A DNA stretch of 51,646 bases. Origin: Anaerolineae bacterium (GTDB taxonomy: Bacteria; Chloroflexota; Anaerolineae; 4572-78; J111). The notes beneath the pieces are model-generated. The model did not search any database. It was not told the origin of the DNA and saw only the letters and a program-made list of their open reading frames with translations. Shown in pieces: positions 215 to 51,646 of this stretch. The stretch covers positions 1-51,646 of the forward strand of contig JAFGDY010000097.1 of the NCBI GenBank assembly GCA_016931895.1, written 5' to 3'. Numbering within the stretch: the stretch's first letter is position 1; each line of letters starts with the position of its first letter. The position numbers and the translations under genes were made by a program.

Positions 215-1507
215 TTATTGAGACCGTTGCTGCTCAAGCACAGGGTCAGCAGGCGCTTTGTCCGTTGTCCAGAAATCCTCAATGGTTGCGTTTGCGCGTA
301 ATTCGCTTAACCACTCGCTGTAGGCCAGTTGCTGGCTCAAACGATAATCAGCCGGAGATAATTCGCGGGTTTCGCGGGCCAATACTTCCAGCACGTGCCA
401 GCCAAATTGGGTTTCAATTGGCTCGCTAATTTCACCAATGGGCAGGGTGAAAATAGCTTCATCAATTGGAGATACAAACCGTCCGCGCGGCACAAAGCCT
501 AAATCGCCTCCGGACATGGCGCTGCCTGGGTCTTGAGATAATTCGCCGGCCAGGTCGGCAAAATCTTCGCCGGCCTGGAGGCGGTTGATCACTGCCTGGG
601 CTTCTTCTTCGGTTTCAACCAAGATGTGGCGGGCATGGGCTTGCTCGGCCAATTTGGGAACTTCGCTGCCTATGGCTTCTTGCAGCTTTTCTCGGAATAT
701 CATCATCTCCATAATGTGCCGATAGGTAGCTTCATCAACCCCGGCGTTTTCGGCCAATATATTCAGCCAGTTTGTGTACTGCGTGCTCAGGCTGTTTTCA
801 TCAATCACGTTCAGGGTGGGGGTGGGAGCCGAGGTGGGTGTATCCACGGGGGTGGCCGTCGGTGTGATTTCCTCGGTGACGGTGAGGGTGGGCGAAGGGG
901 TAAAAGTGGGTGTGGGCGTCCACAGGGCGGCTGTGGCCGAGGCCTCCACCCGGGCCGTTCTGGTTTCCGAGGCCGCCGCGGTTGTCAGTCCGCCTGATTG
1001 TCTGGCCAGGAAACGATTGATGGCTTCGGTGACTTCTGCTTCAGAAGCGGTGATCCCTCGTTGGGCGGCTTCGGTTTCTATCAATTCGTCCTCTATCATC
1101 ACCTCAAGCGTATCGCGGTCAACAAGGAAACGTTGCTGTTGAAGCTGGCTGGCTCGTTGCTCAATTTGACCCATCAACAATTCGGCCAATTGGGTGTCGC
1201 CGGACTGGATTAATTCTTGCCGTTGGGTCAAAAGCTGTTGGAGCTGCTGATCGAGCATAAAGCGCTCATACTTTACCCTGGTTTGGTAATTACGCGTAGA
1301 AATTTCTACGCCGTTTACCGTAGCCACCGGCGAATTAGGCTCAAGGACAAATGTTTGCAAAAGGCCAAAGCCCAAAACAATGGCCACCAGGACCGCTACT
1401 ATGCCCAAACCAGTATAAATAAGGCGCAGTTGTTTTTGTTCTTTACGGGAAAGGGCTAATTGTTTACGGGTGGGCGCTCTACCGGGCTGAACTTCGCGTT
1501 TGGTCAT
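215..1507 (-). CDS. Membrane-anchored parvulin-type peptidylprolyl isomerase
   Basis: This 430-residue protein is predicted to catalyse cis-trans isomerisation of prolyl bonds in exported proteins, like PrsA, SurA or PpiD. It has a basic N-terminus, one membrane segment at about residues 28-55, and a SurA_N/PpiD-like helical region. A Thr/Pro-rich insert follows at about 195-235. The rotamase domain is at about 290-385, with the family signatures ARHILV, GGDLGFV and FGWHVLEV. The start is supported by a GAGGAG Shine-Dalgarno seven bases upstream. It is the last gene of the rpsF-ssb-rpsR group, 87 bp after rpsR, with a palindrome in the gap. The low-complexity insert inside the chaperone part is unusual, since PrsA and SurA proteins usually lack one. 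The family is clear; the exact clients are unknown. Confidence 0.85.
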   Translation of the reverse strand: MTKREVQPGRAPTRKQLALSRKEQKQLRLIYTGLGIVAVLVAIVLGFGLLQTFVLEPNSPVATVNGVEISTRNYQTRVKYERFMLDQQLQQLLTQRQELIQSGDTQLAELLMGQIEQRASQLQQQRFLVDRDTLEVMIEDELIETEAAQRGITASEAEVTEAINRFLARQSGGLTTAAASETRTARVEASATAALWTPTPTFTPSPTLTVTEEITPTATPVDTPTSAPTPTLNVIDENSLSTQYTNWLNILAENAGVDEATYRHIMEMMIFREKLQEAIGSEVPKLAEQAHARHILVETEEEAQAVINRLQAGEDFADLAGELSQDPGSAMSGGDLGFVPRGRFVSPIDEAIFTLPIGEISEPIETQFGWHVLEVLARETRELSPADYRLSQQLAYSEWLSELRANATIEDFWTTDKAPADPVLEQQRSQ

Positions 1508-1545
1508 AAATCTCCTCGATAATTGTTTGAGAAAGAATGAGGCGA

Positions 1546-1563
1546 GCGACCCAGCTGGGTCGC
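1546..1563. repeat. Perfect 18-bp palindrome between rpsR and the PPIase gene
   Basis: The sequence GCGACCCAGCTGGGTCGC is its own reverse complement. On the minus strand it is followed by a short pyrimidine stretch (TCATTCTTTCTC), not a clean T-run. It may be a weak terminator or attenuator that lowers transcription into the PPIase gene, or a protein-binding site. The function is inferred. Confidence 0.5.
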
Positions 1564-1594
1564 CCGCAGCAAAAAAGCGTCAGTAAAGTTGTTT

Positions 1595-2020
1595 CTAATT
1601 TTTGCCGTACAGGCGATGGTGTTCGTCGGTGAACGGGGCCAGGGCCAGGTGCCGCGCCCGTTTGATGGCCGTGGCCAACTGGCGTTGATGTTTGGCGCAC
1701 GTGCCGGTTTTGCGACGAGCGCGAATACTGCCATTGCTGTTCATAAAGCGGCGTAAGGTGTCAATGTTTTTCCAATCAATCACTTTCACCTTGTCTACGC
1801 AAAAAGTGCAGACTTTACGGCGCGGCTGAAAACGGCCCATCGGTCGTTTGTAATCGTCGGAGGTGTCCCGATCCCGTTGTTGCCGGTTATACCGGGATCG
1901 TCGTTGTTGTTGCTGCCTCTGTGGGGGCTTACGGCGCGCCGGTTCGTCCTTCTCGTCGCCCTCGTCAATGTCGTCTTCAATTTCTTCAATTTCATTGTTG
2001 GTTTCAAGTTCTTCAGCCAT
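1595..2020 (-). CDS. rpsR: 30S ribosomal protein S18 with long N-terminal extension
   Basis: The C-terminal ~85 residues are a normal S18 that binds 16S rRNA together with S6 in the small-subunit platform. The zinc-type (C+) ligands are visible: C71 and C74 in CTFC, then C108 and H111 in GTCAKH. The protein is 141 residues, against about 75-85 for typical S18. The extra ~56 residues comprise an acidic stretch (1-27) followed by an Arg/Gln-rich stretch (29-50). The start at 2020 is preceded by an AGGA motif about 9 bases upstream. The gene sits 14 bp downstream of ssb in the conserved rpsF-ssb-rpsR order. The core identification is secure; the extension's role is unknown. Confidence 0.95.
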   Translation of the reverse strand: MAEELETNNEIEEIEDDIDEGDEKDEPARRKPPQRQQQQRRSRYNRQQRDRDTSDDYKRPMGRFQPRRKVCTFCVDKVKVIDWKNIDTLRRFMNSNGSIRARRKTGTCAKHQRQLATAIKRARHLALAPFTDEHHRLYGKN

Positions 2021-2034
2021 AGCTGTTTTCCTAT

Positions 2035-2460
2035 CTATTTTTCAAAATCTAAATGGTCAACAAAATCAAAGGCCAGGTCTTTGTCGCCATAACCATCATT
2101 CTCAGCTTTATCCTGCTGGTCTTTATTTCTGGGCCCCAGGATAATCATTTCATTGGCCACAACTTCCGTACGAAAGTGCCGTTGACCGTTTTCATCTTCC
2201 CAACTGCGCGTTTGCAATCTCCCTTCCACGTAAACCTGTTGGCTTTTAGACAGAATTTGATTGCAAATTTCAGCCAGATTTCCCCAGGCTACAACATTAA
2301 ACCACTCCGTTTCCTCCCGCCGTTCTCCATCGGGGGCCGTCCAGGTGCGGCTGGAGGCCAGGCTAAATGATGTAACCGGCTTGCCAGAGGGCGTGTACCG
2401 CATTTCGGGGTCTCGCCCGATATTACCGATAACCATTACTTTGTTCAATCCTCTTGACAT
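2035..2460 (-). CDS. ssb: Single-stranded DNA-binding protein
   Basis: This is an OB-fold protein that coats ssDNA in replication, repair and recombination. The N-terminal signature MSRGLNKVMVIGNIGRDPE and the downstream WFNVVAWG and YVEGRLQTRSWED motifs are classical. I chose the internal ATG at 2460 (141 residues) because GAGAGG lies 9 bases upstream; the longer reading frame to 2487 adds nine residues with no family match. The C-terminus ends in FVDHLDFEK and lacks a typical DDDIPF-like acidic tip, so partner binding through the tail may differ. It lies between rpsF and rpsR, as in many bacteria. Confidence 0.95.
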   Translation of the reverse strand: MSRGLNKVMVIGNIGRDPEMRYTPSGKPVTSFSLASSRTWTAPDGERREETEWFNVVAWGNLAEICNQILSKSQQVYVEGRLQTRSWEDENGQRHFRTEVVANEMIILGPRNKDQQDKAENDGYGDKDLAFDFVDHLDFEK

Positions 2461-2495
2461 TTTATTAGCCTCTCTATCTAAGACCAAATCAGAAA

Positions 2496-2783
2496 TTAAC
2501 TTTCAACTTTAACCAGCAGATACCGGATAATGTCCTCTGACAATTTTAGTTCGCGCTCTAATTCTATGATTGAGGCTGGGGGAATTTTGGCCTGGAACAA
2601 CACGTAAGTGCCTTCCCGATAATTGTTGATGGCATAGGCCAAATTTCTTCGGCCCCATACATCAACAGACGTCACTTCTCCGTTGACCGTGCCGACAAAC
2701 TTGGTGACCTGATCAACGACACCCGTGACGTCTTCACCCTCGATCGTGGGCTTGATGATGAACGCAAGCTCATAGTCTCGCAT
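2496..2783 (-). CDS. rpsF: 30S ribosomal protein S6
   Basis: A 95-residue S6 of normal length. It starts MRDYELAFIIKP and contains DVWGRRNLAYAINNYREGTYVL, the typical core strands of the ferredoxin-like fold. S6 pairs with S18 on the 16S rRNA platform. The start has a strong AAGGAGGT Shine-Dalgarno. It is the first gene of the operon and carries a hairpin leader upstream that could bind the S6:S18 complex. Confidence 0.97.
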   Translation of the reverse strand: MRDYELAFIIKPTIEGEDVTGVVDQVTKFVGTVNGEVTSVDVWGRRNLAYAINNYREGTYVLFQAKIPPASIIELERELKLSEDIIRYLLVKVES

Positions 2784-2821
2784 GCCAGTTTACCTCCTTT
2801 CTACGGATTTAGCCCCTAGTC

Positions 2822-2871
2822 TTTGCCAGGAGCAGAAAGAATGGAGCCGGTCAGTGGCTCCATTTGGCAAA
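2822..2871 (-). promoter_or_regulatory. Hairpin leader of rpsF, candidate S6:S18 autoregulatory element
   Basis: Read on the minus strand, two nested perfect stems are visible. The outer stem is TTTGCCA/TGGCAAA. The inner stem is AATGGAGCC/GGCTCCATT and closes a seven-base loop ACTGACC, so ACCGG sits at the loop-stem boundary. The element lies between the rpsF promoter and its start codon. S6:S18 leaders are known in many bacteria and carry a CCG feature in a hairpin that mimics the rRNA site. The match here is by position and general shape only. Confidence 0.55.
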
Positions 2872-2876
2872 ACAAT

Positions 2877-2904
2877 ACTATATCACAAATTCTATTGAAC
2901 GCAA
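2877..2904 (-). promoter_or_regulatory. Sigma70-type promoter of the rpsF operon
   Basis: On the minus strand a -35 box TTGCGT (2899-2904) and a -10 box TATAGT (2877-2882) are separated by 16 bp. Transcription would begin near 2870, just before the leader hairpin. Confidence 0.6.
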
Positions 2905-3164
2905 AATGCGCTATGTTTGGCGGACCGGCAATCCCTAAGGAAAAACGACGAAGGACGAAGGACCAACGACGAACGACGGACGACGAAACCTGGCCATTGG
3001 TCGTTGGTCAGAATGACAAATTGTAACCGGATTGTAATGCTTATATTAAAAAATTTGTGGTAAGCTAACGATAAGAAGTTTAGCTGGATAATCTTTGCAA
3101 TATTCCGGGGAAAACTTCTCATTCACCTGAACTTTTAAAATATTTTTCACAGGAGCCAGGATCA
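2905..3164. repeat. Intergenic region with degenerate ACGACGA repeats and an inverted repeat
   Basis: No gene is seen. Bases 2941-2990 consist of loose copies of ACGACGA, AAGGACG and GGACGACG. Within them GACCAACGAC (2961-2970) is matched by its exact reverse complement GTCGTTGGTC (3000-3009), which would form a long-looped hairpin. A weak plus-strand promoter candidate for the receiver gene has TTGTAA at 3021-3026 and TATATT at 3042-3047, but its 15-bp spacer is short. Confidence 0.45.
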
Positions 3165-3566
3165 ATGCCCACCATTCTCTACGCCGAAGATGACGTTGAA
3201 CACCGAGAAATGATGCGCGTCATCCTAAAAGACACCGACATCACCCTTGTTGAAGCCACCAACGGCCAGGAAGCTTTGCAGAAGATCCAGCATCAACACC
3301 CCGATCTGGTTTTGCTGGACCTGTTTATGCCCAAACTGGATGGCCATGGCGTGATGGAGGCATTAAAATCCGACCCCGAAACCAGCCATATTCCCATTAT
3401 TGTTCTTTCGGCCTGGTCTACCGGCGACAACCGGAAGCGGGCCAGAAGTGCTGGGGCGCTGGAATTTATTGCCAAACCTTATGATCCGGTTGAATTGGTG
3501 AGCGTGGTTAGAGATTATCTGGCCGGTCGCATCGGCTCGCCCCAGCAGGCGCTTTCTCAGGGGTAA
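3165..3566 (+). CDS. Single-domain response regulator (receiver only)
   Basis: This 133-residue protein is almost entirely a CheY-like receiver domain. The acidic pocket D9/D10, phosphorylated Asp D52 (LLDLFMP), switch Ser S82 and conserved Lys K104 (AKPYDP) are all present. There is no output domain, so it should act by protein contact or as a phosphorelay shuttle. AGGAG lies 12 bases upstream of the ATG. No histidine kinase is adjacent; the hybrid kinase and the kinase-like protein at 32-41 kb are the only visible candidates in the window, and a link to them is speculative. Confidence 0.9.
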   Translation: MPTILYAEDDVEHREMMRVILKDTDITLVEATNGQEALQKIQHQHPDLVLLDLFMPKLDGHGVMEALKSDPETSHIPIIVLSAWSTGDNRKRARSAGALEFIAKPYDPVELVSVVRDYLAGRIGSPQQALSQG

Positions 3567-3692
3567 ACATAGCCAGCGTTTGCCCGGTATCAGTTTACTT
3601 TGGCTACTTCCGGCAATTTATCCTGTTGTCGGGCTAAAGTAGGCGGCAGCTTGTGCTCCAGGCAGACTTGAACAGGAGAATCGTTTACGCCT

Positions 3693-3800
3693 ATGGCGCC
3701 AATCTGGGAGTGGGGCAACCAGCTCATTATTTCTATTCAAGCCGTCCACAATCCTGTCCTGGACGGCTTTTTTAATGCCGTCATTTTTTTGGGTGAGTGG
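3693..3800 (+). pseudogene. Remnant of a PAP2-type phosphatase gene (N-terminus only)
   Basis: The frame starting at ATG 3693 reads AIQ-type PAP2 N-terminal sequence: a Trp-rich start, then LIISIQAVHNPVLDGFFNAV and IFLGE. This resembles the first helices of bacterial PAP2 membrane phosphatases (commonly I/L-Q-x-x-x-x-P-x-L-D-x-F-F-x-x-x-T-F-L-G). After GE at about 3796 the similarity stops and the frame runs on only to 3881. None of the catalytic motifs are present. It looks like a gene truncated by deletion up against the next gene. The rest of 3567-3877 shows nothing else. Confidence 0.5.
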
Positions 3801-3877
3801 CGGCGCGTTGTGGCTGTTCAAGCGGGTCAACCTGGCCTGACTTTACAAAACTCCATTTTTTATGTAAACTTTCTGGT

Positions 3878-48783: not shown

Positions 48784-51246
48784 GTGCAGGCCGGCGGCGA
48801 CATTAACGTCAACCAGCAGAATATCTTTATGCCCCCGTCGGAGCCGGACCGGGCTGAGCAACTGGCTAAATATTTGGGCGTAATGGTCAAAATCTTTGAC
48901 GACCTGCCGCTGGCCCCCTTTGACCCCACCGGCGAGTGCGTTAATATCAACCTCAACCAGGTGTACGTTAGCCTGGATGCCCAGACCGCCCGGCCCATAA
49001 CGCTTGAGGATGGGCAGGCCGGGCAAACCCAGGCTGTGCTGGCCGCGGCCAACCAGCGCGATAAGTTGATTGTCTTGGGCGACCCCGGCTCCGGCAAGTT
49101 TACCTTTTTGAAATTTTTGGGGCTGTGCCTGGCCCAGACCCACCTGGCCCCACCGCAGCAAGCGGAGTGGCTGGCCCGCCTGCGCTGGCCCGTTTATCCT
49201 GAGCAGCCGGAACGCCAGGCCCGCGGCCCGCAGGAAAAAGATGAACCCTTGGGCTACCTGGCCTGGCAGCGCCCGTTGTACGTGCCGGTGCTGGTAGTGA
49301 TGCGCCGATTTGTTGACGTCTCGCTCAATGTTGCCTCGCCCCTGGCCCTGTGGGAACTGATAAAACTGGACCTGGCCGAAAGGGGCTTAACCGATACCGC
49401 CCCCGCGCTTTACGAAACCCTCCGTCGGGGCCAGGCCATGCTGCTACTGGACGGCGTGGACGAAGTGCCGCCCGACCGCCGCCGCCAGGCCTGGCAGTCC
49501 ATTGGCGCGCTGGCCCGCGGCGCCTTCAACCAATGCCCCTGGATTGCCACCTGCCGCGAACTCTCTTTTATTGAAACAGAAGCCGCCGCCAGGGCCGACG
49601 AGCGGGTGATCCTGGCTCCGTTGCAGCAGGCCCAAATCACCGGCTTTATCACAGCCTGGTATCAGGTGTTGGTGCAAAAAGGCAACAAATCGCCCCGCGA
49701 GGCCGAACAACTGACCACCCATTTGATCAACGTGGCTACCCAGGACCCCCGCGTCCATTCCCTGGCCCAAAACCCCATGCTGCTGACCATTATGGCCATT
49801 GTGCAAACCTACCGGGGCGCGTTGCCCCGCGAGCGGGCCAAACTTTACCAGGCCTGTATTGAAATTATGCTGGTGCGCTGGCAGGTGCAAAAAGAAGGCC
49901 CGCAGCACGAACTGCCCGCCTCCCTCAAAGGGGCCAGCCTGGAAACCCTGCAAGCCCTGCTGCAAGAGATTGGCTGGGAGGCCCATCATGCTCCCGGCGG
50001 CGCGGCCGGCCGCGCCGCCGATATTCCCGGCGAGCGCGTTTTTGCCCTTGCCCGCAAACATCTTAAAGACATCGAGCAGGTAACCGCCTTTATGCAGTAC
50101 ACCGAAGAACGGGCGCACCTGCTGATTGGCCGGGGCGGCGAGGACAAACCCTACTACAGTTTCCCCCACCGCACCTTTCAGGAATACCTGGCCGGGTGTT
50201 ACCTTTCTAACCAGGACGATTTTGGCGAGCAGGCCGCGGCCCTGGCCGGTGACGACACCTGGCGCGAAGCCCTGTTGCTGGCCGCCGGCAACCTGGTTTT
50301 TAACATGCAAACCCTGGGCCACCGGGCCTTATTGGCGGCCCTGGCCGACATGCTGCCCGAAACCCAACCCGCTCCCGGCGACGCCCCCGGTTGGCAGTTG
50401 GCGTGGCGCGTGGGCGAAATGCTGGCCGTGCTGGGCGCAGCAGACGCCGCCAAGTATCGCCAGGGCCAAAAGCTGCTGCCCCAGGCCCGGGCCTGCCTGG
50501 CCGCCCTGCTGGCCCACGGCCAATTACAGCCCGCCGAACGCGCCGAAGCCGGGCAAACCCTGGCCGCCCTGGGCGACCCGCGGCCTGGTGTAGGGGTAAC
50601 GGAAGATGGATTGCCCCATATTGCCTGGCGCGCCATCCCCGCCGGTGAATTTATCATGGGCCAGGGCCAAGACGCCCACCCCGTTACCCTGCCTGCCTTT
50701 CAAATTAGCCAATATCCCCTCACCAATGTACAATACGGCGCGTTTGTGGCGGCCGGCGGGTATGAGCATAAAGATTATTGGCCCGAAGCCGTTGCCGCCG
50801 GTTACTGGCGGGAGGGCAAGTTCAAAGGATGGGCGGATGAAGAACCCCGCGACCGGCCCTATGATTTTGGCCCGCCCTTTAACCTGCCCAACCACCCGGT
50901 GGTGGGCGTAAGCTGGTACGAGGCGGTGGCCTTTTGCCGCTGGTTGGGCGAGCTGTGGGGCTGCCCGGCGCGCCTGCCCAGCGAGGCCGAATGGGAAAAA
51001 GCCGCCCGTGGCGCCGACGGCCGGCCCTATCCGTGGGGAGACCACCAGAAGGTGGCCACCCGGTGCAATATGGCCCAAACCGGCCTGGGCGCACCCTGCG
51101 CCGTGGGCATGTTCCCCGCAGGAGCCAGCCCCTACAACGTGTTTGATATGAGCGGCAACGTGTGGGAATGGTGCAGCACGTTTTGGCAAAAAAAAACCTT
51201 ATCCTTTTCGGGTTGTGGACGAGTGGACGGCGGACTATTTGAGTAA
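48784..51246 (+). CDS. NACHT NTPase-FGE/SUMF1 protein, frame lost near the 3' end
   Basis: 820 residues as read from the GTG at 48784, whose ribosome-binding site is weak. The NACHT-type NTPase (~70-390) has a P-loop G-D-P-G-S-G-K-F-T (Lys 105, Phe 106 where Ser/Thr is expected) and an intact Walker B LLLDGVDEV (Asp 223, Asp 226, Glu 227). Helical NACHT-associated sequence includes FPHRTFQEYLAGCYL at ~460. An FGE-sulfatase (SUMF1-like) domain runs from ~605: IPAGEFIMGQG, FQISQYPLTNVQYGAFV, GVSWYEAVAFCRWLG, LPSEAEWEKAARG, YPWG and NVFDMSGNVWEW. After WQKK the frame leaves the family and stops at 51246; the missing end lies in another frame. Such proteins are found in candidate conflict systems. 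Confidence 0.85.
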   Translation: MQAGGDINVNQQNIFMPPSEPDRAEQLAKYLGVMVKIFDDLPLAPFDPTGECVNINLNQVYVSLDAQTARPITLEDGQAGQTQAVLAAANQRDKLIVLGDPGSGKFTFLKFLGLCLAQTHLAPPQQAEWLARLRWPVYPEQPERQARGPQEKDEPLGYLAWQRPLYVPVLVVMRRFVDVSLNVASPLALWELIKLDLAERGLTDTAPALYETLRRGQAMLLLDGVDEVPPDRRRQAWQSIGALARGAFNQCPWIATCRELSFIETEAAARADERVILAPLQQAQITGFITAWYQVLVQKGNKSPREAEQLTTHLINVATQDPRVHSLAQNPMLLTIMAIVQTYRGALPRERAKLYQACIEIMLVRWQVQKEGPQHELPASLKGASLETLQALLQEIGWEAHHAPGGAAGRAADIPGERVFALARKHLKDIEQVTAFMQYTEERAHLLIGRGGEDKPYYSFPHRTFQEYLAGCYLSNQDDFGEQAAALAGDDTWREALLLAAGNLVFNMQTLGHRALLAALADMLPETQPAPGDAPGWQLAWRVGEMLAVLGAADAAKYRQGQKLLPQARACLAALLAHGQLQPAERAEAGQTLAALGDPRPGVGVTEDGLPHIAWRAIPAGEFIMGQGQDAHPVTLPAFQISQYPLTNVQYGAFVAAGGYEHKDYWPEAVAAGYWREGKFKGWADEEPRDRPYDFGPPFNLPNHPVVGVSWYEAVAFCRWLGELWGCPARLPSEAEWEKAARGADGRPYPWGDHQKVATRCNMAQTGLGAPCAVGMFPAGASPYNVFDMSGNVWEWCSTFWQKKTLSFSGCGRVDGGLFE

Positions 51247-51400
51247 AAATGTTGGGCGGGTGTTGCGGGGAGGATCGTTTTATGAGAACGCTGAGCACGT
51301 GTGTTGCGCGTCGCGCCTCGGGCACGGTCCGAACGGCAGGCTCTGGTATCTCGGTTTTCGGGTGGTGCGCCCCCCAGTTTTTGGGGAATCTGGTCTCTGA
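51188..51400 (+). other. Out-of-frame C-terminus of the FGE domain behind an A9 run
   Basis: Nine A occur at 51188-51196. With one A removed, the frame continues as W-Q-K-K-P-Y-P-F-R-V-V-D-E-W and on to GRVLRGGSFYENAEHVCCAS and YLGFRVVRPPVFG, the normal end of an FGE/SUMF1 domain, stopping at 51398-51400. The restored protein would be about 871 residues. The cause is either an indel in the sequence or strain, or slippage on the A-run that yields a second, full-length product. Confidence 0.85.
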
Positions 51401-51415
51401 AACCTCTGGTCTCTG
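51389..51415. repeat. Short direct repeat
   Basis: TCTGGTCTCTG occurs at 51389-51399 and again at 51405-51415, straddling the end of the FGE reading frame. It probably marks insertion or repeat-slippage at the border of the palindrome cluster. Confidence 0.5.
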
Positions 51416-51443
51416 GCCCGCTGAAAATCTGAATCTTACCGAT

Positions 51444-51467
51444 GGTTACGGTTATTCAACCGTAACC
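51444..51467. repeat. REP-like palindrome 1
   Basis: Perfect 10-bp arms GGTTACGGTT and AACCGTAACC around the loop ATTC. The arms are identical to those of palindrome 4. Confidence 0.8.
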
Positions 51468-51476
51468 AGCCTCTAT

Positions 51477-51492
51477 GCCGAGTTAACTCGGC
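51477..51492. repeat. REP-like palindrome 2
   Basis: A 16-bp perfect palindrome GCCGAGTTAACTCGGC with no loop, 9 bp after palindrome 1. Confidence 0.75.
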
Positions 51493-51500
51493 CTAATACC

Positions 51501-51524
51501 GGTTGCAGTTTCAAAACTGCAACC
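51501..51524. repeat. REP-like palindrome 3
   Basis: Perfect 10-bp arms GGTTGCAGTT and AACTGCAACC around TCAA. It follows the same plan as palindromes 1 and 4 but differs at two paired positions per arm, so the pairing is kept by compensating changes. Confidence 0.8.
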
Positions 51525-51546
51525 ATCACTATCGCGGCTTATCGCT

Positions 51547-51570
51547 GGTTACGGTTTTCAAACCGTAACC
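51547..51570. repeat. REP-like palindrome 4
   Basis: Perfect 10-bp arms GGTTACGGTT and AACCGTAACC around TTCA, the same arms as palindrome 1. Confidence 0.8.
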
Positions 51571-51578
51571 TGTCTTAT

Positions 51579-51592
51579 CGGATTTTAATCCG
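51579..51592. repeat. REP-like palindrome 5
   Basis: Arms CGGATT and AATCCG around TT, 8 bp after palindrome 4 and ending three bases before the ATG of the putative transposase. Confidence 0.7.
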
Positions 51593-51595
51593 CCC

Positions 51596-51646
51596 ATGCG
51601 TTCAAGATATAAAATCACCGAGCAAACCCCCGTTTATTTCATTACC
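51596..51646 (+). CDS. 5' end of a REP-associated (RAYT/Y1) transposase, cut by the window
   Basis: From ATG 51596 the frame reads MRSRYKITEQTPVYFIT and runs off the window. RAYT proteins (TnpA_REP, IS200-related Y1 HUH transposases) commonly begin with a basic residue, Tyr/Lys and then a D/P-x-x-Y-F-V/I-T strand of this type. Only 17 codons can be read, so the catalytic His-x-His and Tyr are not seen. The cluster of palindromes immediately upstream is what such transposases act on, and supports the call. There is no clear Shine-Dalgarno, since the start directly follows palindrome 5. Confidence 0.6.
   Translation, partial: MRSRYKITEQTPVYFIT

What the first reader, a model, noticed from the sequence alone, without database searches (positions are those of the whole stretch)
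51421..51646. Palindrome cluster next to a putative RAYT transposase start
Five perfect palindromes lie within about 150 bp. Three share the plan GGTTRCRGTT-N4-AACYGYAACC, with paired changes that keep the stems, and spacers are 9, 8, 22 and 8 bp. The frame beginning three bases after the last one reads like the N-terminus of an IS200-related RAYT protein. Known REP elements are short, imperfect stem-loops with a foot; perfect, loopless or 4-nt-loop palindromes of several different sequences next to one transposase would be an unusual REP type. They also sit at the end of a NACHT-FGE gene, so the element may have entered there.
Basis: partly seen in the sequence, partly recalled or inferred. 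Interest (0 to 1): 0.75.

Follow-up and report, generated by a model that had tools for sequence, protein, structure and literature searches.

The report
Hairpin arrays beside a REP transposase
The palindromes are real: they are one copy of a small, ordered set of three DNA hairpins that is scattered through this bacterial family, lies on both sides of a hairpin-cutting (REP-type) transposase gene, keeps its hairpins while the letters change, and also rides inside unrelated mini-transposons.

Summary
Five perfect palindromes (P1-P5) lie at 51443-51592 and ATG follows at 51596. The window is a whole contig. Contig C74 overlaps its last 87 bp exactly and completes a 179-codon RAYT: REP-associated tyrosine transposase, NCBIfam 107.5 bits against a cut-off of 80, with HUH and catalytic Tyr. 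An in-frame TAG replaces an otherwise invariant Trp.

P1-P2-P3 is a unit. A model built from 13 copies finds it in 9 of 61 near genomes, tens of copies in some. Across 50 copies, 96% of stem cells pair and 21 of 27 pairs show two-sided changes. Arrays flank this RAYT, a RAYT relic in a sister species, and the RAYT's closest relative (Nitrospinota, about 50% identity), but none of 27 other RAYT-like loci in eight related genomes. GTAG tags are absent; inverted (T/C)GAT feet mark both ends.

In one relative the array sits in a 135-bp TIR element with 8-9-bp target duplications. In another it is one of several hairpin cassettes inside a different TIR shell, and has sharp edges without duplications.

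Verdict: a non-GTAG REPtron variant whose REP-like unit is three separate, co-varying hairpins. RAYT cleavage of it is inferred, not shown.

The parts
51443..51468 (+). P1: palindrome TGGTTACGGTT-ATTC-AACCGTAACCA; first hairpin of the three-hairpin unit; 5' foot CGAT
   Evidence: homologues and covariation
51477..51492 (+). P2: loopless palindrome GCCGAGTTAACTCGGC; central hairpin
51501..51524 (+). P3: palindrome GGTTGCAGTTT-CA-AAACTGCAACC; third hairpin; its outer side (51525-51528, ATCA) is the inverted TGAT foot
51547..51570 (+). P4: palindrome GGTTACGGTTT-TC-AAACCGTAACC; foot CGCT; contig C74 begins inside it
51579..51592 (+). P5: palindrome CGGATT-TT-AATCCG, three bases before the RAYT ATG
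   Evidence: a counterpart at the same place in the G221 relic
51435..51535 (+). three-hairpin unit P1-P2-P3 as matched by covariance model R1 (98 bits)
51596..51646 (+). first 17 codons of the RAYT gene (MRSRYKITEQTPVYFIT); it continues in contig C74 (L041:37-576), 179 codons with one in-frame TAG at codon 119
   Evidence: 87-bp exact overlap; families; alignment; fold
48784..51401 (+). neighbouring NACHT-FGE gene: open frame ends at 51246; another frame carries on the FGE C-terminus to about 51401 after an A9 run near 51190

Best explanation
This is the 5' side of a RAYT locus (a REPtron) of the non-GTAG, subclass-2.6-like kind. Its REP-like repeat is an ordered unit of three separate hairpins (P1-P2-P3) bounded by inverted (T/C)GAT feet. 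Shown: the RAYT identity, arrays on both sides of this RAYT clade, dispersal through intergenic DNA, conservation of the three hairpins by compensatory change, and sharp unit edges without target duplications in one genome. Inferred: the RAYT binds the single-stranded hairpins (as on the lagging-strand template), cuts near the feet and moves or copies the unit in trans, so that hairpins and protein co-evolve. Once present, arrays also hitch-hike inside TIR mini-transposons, which spread them with target duplications. P5 beside the start codon may damp RAYT translation (inference). The window's own RAYT carries a TAG at an invariant Trp and is probably inactive.
For: RAYT: NF047646 107.5 bits against cut-off 80, Y1_Tnp, best solved relative 4er8 TnpAREP by sequence and by fold (model pLDDT 88), HUH and Tyr invariant. 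Array homology. Covariation: 13 of 28 pairs and 21 of 27 pairs, 0 of 500 shuffles. Linkage: R1 hits both sides of this RAYT, of the G221 relic and of the Nitrospinota RAYT; no hit at 27 other RAYT-like loci of eight related genomes; window and Nitrospinota RAYTs form a 100/98 clade. Five-palindrome leader colinear with the relic's. Unit edges in many contexts, no TSD. Feet. Intergenic in 57 of 63 with no strand bias.
Against: No cleavage or movement was observed. The arrays with proven insertion footprints (G261) moved as TIR elements with 8-9-bp TSDs, not by Y1 chemistry. G161 has tens of arrays but no RAYT with an array was found among its three matches (genome about 80% complete). The linkage rests on three loci, one a relic. 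The window RAYT has a premature stop. Absence of TSDs in G161 could reflect age.
Confidence: 0.7

Rival explanations
1. The arrays are hairpin filling of ordinary DDE-type MITEs. The DDE transposase alone spreads them; their place beside three RAYTs reflects RAYT-locus DNA caught in MITEs, or MITEs landing near RAYTs.
For: G261: about ten full 135-bp elements with TIR GGCTAYCMACTTAAG, own-flank TSD score 5.7 against 0.12 for crossed flanks. G161: a TIR shell with 107 ends carries arrays in 16 of 30 exact-TIR loci and other hairpins in most of the rest. G221 copies show TIRs and some 7-bp TSDs.
Against: The shells of the genomes differ while the core is homologous; the core has its own edges in unrelated contexts and no TSD there; the window and Nitrospinota arrays lie beside RAYTs without such TIRs; arrays are tied to one RAYT clade.
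Confidence: 0.17
2. The array is a structured RNA or regulatory element (terminator, mRNA stabiliser, protein-binding RNA) kept by selection on the host.
For: Strong covariation of three stems, mostly intergenic positions.
Against: No Rfam match in four loci searched; tandem-gene orientation is even, 16 same and 15 opposite; copy number varies widely between near relatives; stems are nearly perfect palindromes, equally good on both strands; no shared neighbour gene was seen.
Confidence: 0.08
3. Chance palindromes or an assembly artefact at the contig end.
For: The cluster lies at a contig end and the RAYT is joined through an 87-bp overlap.
Against: Homologous arrays inside other contigs and genomes; shuffles give none; RAYT homology of about 50% runs across the join.
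Confidence: 0.02

Closest known systems
RAYT / TnpAREP subclass 2.6 (Bertels group 5), Quentin et al. 2018 (PMC6006769)
   Same: About 179 aa, NH[LIV]H, Q of WQ, YIHxNP; relatives mostly in Bacteroidetes; no GTAG; atypical flanking structures with copies elsewhere in the genome.
   Different: Here the flanking structures are strong, near-perfect palindromes in a fixed three-hairpin order; the paper describes weaker structures. YIHFNP differs by one letter from the listed YIH[QN]NP, and the W of WQ is a stop in the window copy.
GTAG REPs and group 3 REPtrons (S. maltophilia, Marinomonas; PMC8266576)
   Same: Perfect palindromes with 2-4-nt loops beside a RAYT, inverted orientation around the gene, a tetranucleotide foot outside the hairpin.
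   Different: No GTAG or GTGG anywhere in 51421-51600; the foot is (T/C)GAT or CGCT; the unit has three different hairpins.
REPIN (Bertels and Rainey 2011, PMC3116915)
   Same: About 100-bp intergenic unit, two outer REP-like hairpins in inverted orientation, a pairing spacer with compensatory changes, linked to a RAYT.
   Different: P1 and P3 are not kept complementary to each other (75% paired against 73.8% shuffled), so no single long hairpin is conserved.
BIMEs, and TIRtrons (Di Nocera et al. 2013, PMC3733652)
   Same: Mosaic arrays of palindromes; precedent for RAYT genes flanked by TIRs and for REP remnants fused to unrelated stem-loops.
   Different: Here the same array core is found inside differing TIR shells in different genera, with true target duplications in one of them.
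Bacterial MITEs
   Same: In G261 a 135-bp non-coding element with TIRs and 8-9-bp TSDs.
   Different: The window copy has no such TIR; in the G161 shell the internal hairpin cassettes vary between copies.

Membership tests
RAYT / TnpAREP | HUH motif and catalytic Tyr in a Y1 domain | tested here: met
   H60, H62 and Y140 invariant in 27 homologues; aligned to 4er8
RAYT / TnpAREP | matches the curated family model over its cut-off | tested here: met
   NF047646 107.5 bits, cut-off 80; transpos_IS200 only 19.8 against 55
RAYT / TnpAREP | TnpAREP fold | tested here: met
   Foldseek best hit 4er8, E 9.7e-9, TM 0.62/0.67
RAYT / TnpAREP | intact reading frame | tested here: not met
   TAG at codon 119, an invariant Trp; this bears on activity of this copy, not on family membership
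REPtron | RAYT gene flanked on both sides by palindromic repeats in inverted orientation | tested here: met
   P1-P5 upstream; GCGACTAAAGTCGC and GGCTGCGGTTGCATAACCGCAGCC(ATCA) downstream; R1 39 bits downstream
REPtron | GTAG/GTGG tetranucleotide 5' of the hairpin | tested here: not met
   none in 51421-51600; TGAT/CGAT instead in 37 of 50 (5') and 40 of 50 (3'). Subclass 2.6 and class 3 loci also lack GTAG (PMC6006769)
REPtron | copies of the repeat elsewhere in the genome | tested here: met
   2 close further copies plus weaker ones in G000; tens of matches in relatives
REPtron | RAYT cuts single-stranded REP DNA | not testable with these tools
   needs protein and oligonucleotides
TnpAY1 subclass 2.6 | motifs NH[LIV]H, WQ, YIH[QN]NP and atypical flanking structures | tested here: inconclusive
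   NHLH and Q met, W is a stop, YIHFNP; groups with Bacteroidota RAYTs in the tree; the subclass HMM was not run
REPIN | two inverted REPs with outward feet | tested here: met
   inverted TGAT feet outside P1 and P3
REPIN | the two REPs pair into one long hairpin | tested here: not met
   P1-P3 pairing at shuffle level; seven copies fold as separate hairpins
MITE | TIRs with target duplications | tested here: inconclusive
   met for the G261 shell and some G221 copies; not for the G161 array unit; no such TIR seen at the window copy

The most novel reading that the evidence does not exclude
A Y1-transposase clade shared by two phyla mobilises an ordered three-hairpin array, with GAT-type feet instead of GTAG, whose stems turn over freely while the three-hairpin plan is kept; the array doubles as an exchangeable cassette inside unrelated DDE mini-transposon shells, so one repeat is spread by two kinds of transposase.
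Probability: 0.35. Interest if true: 0.65.

Novelty: new variant of a known kind. Interest (0 to 1): 0.5.

Why it matters
Subclass 2.6 RAYTs were noted only as having 'atypical' flanking structures. This gives one such clade a concrete candidate substrate with a covariance model, many natural variants and feet to mutate, so RAYT-repeat co-evolution outside the GTAG world can be tested. The nested TIR shells suggest a second route by which REP-like repeats spread, which would change how copy numbers of REPs are read.

Tried and rejected
Rfam search of four loci: nothing. A parent DDE transposon for the G261 TIR was sought; the extra single TIR-like hits lie in ordinary genes, and L323 in G161 holds no transposase. 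One long REPIN hairpin between P1 and P3: not supported (the constrained-energy version of this test was blocked by my own constraint and says nothing beyond the free folds). A repeat of the FGE C-terminus elsewhere in the held sequence, as for a diversity-generating retroelement: none found. The up/down labels are swapped for minus-strand matches because genome-search loci are not reoriented; only presence of palindromes was used. The first TSD script used a wrong length range and was redone. The whole genome was not available as a file, so copy numbers come from searches with candidate limits and are lower bounds. Long-read proof of the C97-C74 join was not available.

Full report
Observation. 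Dinucleotide shuffles of this stretch give on average 0.27 palindromes with arms of 6 or more and none with arms of 10 or more, against 5 and 3 seen. As single-stranded DNA the stretch folds with z = -11.

The gene. The window is the whole contig C97 of a 6.06-Mb, 320-contig genome. Contig C74 starts with an exact copy of the last 87 bp and carries the frame on to 179 codons. The protein matches NCBIfam REP_Tyr_transpos at 107.5 bits (cut-off 80) and Pfam Y1_Tnp. By sequence and by predicted fold (pLDDT 88) its best solved relative is E. coli TnpAREP bound to a REP hairpin (4er8). His60, His62, Trp119 and Tyr140 are invariant in 27 homologues (the window copy read with TAG as Trp for the alignment and fold); codon 119 is TAG in this genome, so this copy is probably inactive or is read poorly. 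The motifs NHLH, (W)Q and YIHFNP resemble subclass 2.6 of Quentin et al. (PMC6006769), listed as NH[LIV]H, WQ, YIH[QN]NP with 'atypical secondary structures'.

The unit. Two further places in the genome, C72 and C128, carry P1-P2-P3 in the same order and spacing without a RAYT. In 13 copies from three genomes, 13 of 28 stem pairs show changes on both sides, against 4.5 in shuffles. A covariance model, R1, built from these finds the array in 9 of 61 near genomes: many matches in G161, G221 and G261, fewer in G269, G296, G211, G231 and G200 (arrays are nearly symmetric, so each place often matches on both strands, and counts are lower bounds). In a 396-genome sample of the class, only seven genomes of the same family (the window's own included) and one of the same order match at E 1e-4. 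Each genome has its own stems and cores: loops ATTC or ATGT in P1, centres GTTAAC, CTTAAG or TATATA in P2, TTCAAA or TACACA in P3. In 50 copies 96.1% of stem cells pair, 21 of 27 pairs have two-sided changes, and 236 cells have them against 83 in shuffles. A pairing of P1 with P3, as in a REPIN, is not kept; seven copies fold as separate hairpins. GTAG and GTGG are absent from 51421-51600; instead TGAT or CGAT stands directly outside P1 (37 of 50) and, on the other strand, outside P3 (40 of 50).

Link to the RAYT. R1 hits upstream (98 bits) and downstream (39 bits) of this RAYT, upstream and downstream of a RAYT relic in the same-genus genome G221 (33-34 bits), and upstream and downstream of the RAYT of a Nitrospinota MAG (25-27 bits, E about 0.002), the closest named relative at 50% identity. 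The relic (residues 1-22 joined to 146-178) keeps a leader colinear with P1-P5, its stems changed. At 27 other RAYT-like loci of eight relatives there is no hit. In a tree of 74 proteins the window and Nitrospinota RAYTs form a clade with support 100/98, far from the genome's other two Y1 proteins in the tree. Other RAYTs of the class have palindromes of their own, so the general pattern is the known one: each RAYT clade with its own repeat.

How it spreads. Arrays are mostly intergenic (57 of 63 outside open frames of 90 aa or more) and show no bias of orientation. Two patterns were seen. In G261 about ten full 135-bp elements with TIR GGCTAYCMACTTAAG surround the array; flanks match as 8-9-bp duplications in most (score 5.7 against 0.12 for crossed flanks). 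G221 copies often lie in another shell (TIR like TTCTACAATGTCACATT) with some 7-bp duplications. G161 has 107 ends of a third TIR; of 30 exact-TIR loci I read 16 with the array (some lacking P3), 10 with a GTCATTCCCGC hairpin cassette, and four others. In G161 the array also has sharp edges of its own, TTCCTGATC outside P1 and ATCATG outside P3, in some 15-20 left and 11 right contexts, and there no target duplication is detectable (2.4 against 2.4 for crossed flanks). The spacer after P3 in the window (ATCACTATCGCGGCTTA) resembles the end of the G261 element (ATCACTGTCGCGGCTTAAG), which suggests that the G261 core came from a RAYT leader.

Mechanism. Shown: RAYT identity, linkage to one clade, conserved hairpins, dispersal, hitch-hiking in TIR elements. 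Inferred: recognition of single-stranded hairpins and cutting near the GAT feet, as TnpAREP does with GTAG REPs (PMC8266576). The main rival is that TIR transposases alone spread the arrays. The lack of an array-linked RAYT in G161 and the nonsense codon here are the main points against.

Known or new. RAYT genes flanked by inverted REPs are known (PMC2817692), as are perfect palindromic REPs (PMC8266576), REPINs (PMC3116915) and RAYT loci with TIRs (PMC3733652). In the open literature searched I found no description of a three-hairpin, GAT-footed unit or of such units as cassettes in TIR shells.

Noticed in passing
window 48784-51401 (+): The NACHT-FGE gene's open frame ends at 51246, but after an A9 run near 51190 another frame continues with a typical FGE C-terminus (LRGGSF...GFRVVRPP) to about 51401: a frameshift or a homopolymer error. 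The NACHT score is just under the Pfam cut-off.
   Followed up: partly
L315-L344 (G161): A TIR shell (TTAAGTAGTTTTCAGAACTAACTTGT, 107 ends) holds different hairpin cassettes in different copies.
   Followed up: partly
L005 (G000:C87) 1251-3345: Another Y1 transposase of the same genome lies among its own long perfect palindromes (AGAAGTTCAACTTTTT... and AGAAGTCGGGCTTTTTT..., arms 16-17).
   Followed up: no
L216, L219, L260, L263: A four-hairpin variant of the array has an extra palindrome (GCTGAAATAATTCAGC or similar) between P1 and P2.
   Followed up: no
L083:2700-2910 and 3560-3850: The Nitrospinota RAYT is flanked by 96-98% identical array copies, one upstream and two in tandem downstream, with GGATTTGCAATCC-type cores and GCT feet.
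   Followed up: partly
window 49995-50020: A 13-bp-arm perfect GC-rich palindrome lies inside the NACHT-FGE reading frame.
   Followed up: no
L008 (G000:C54:71-247): A further degraded Y1 transposase with an in-frame TAG lies at a contig start.
   Followed up: no
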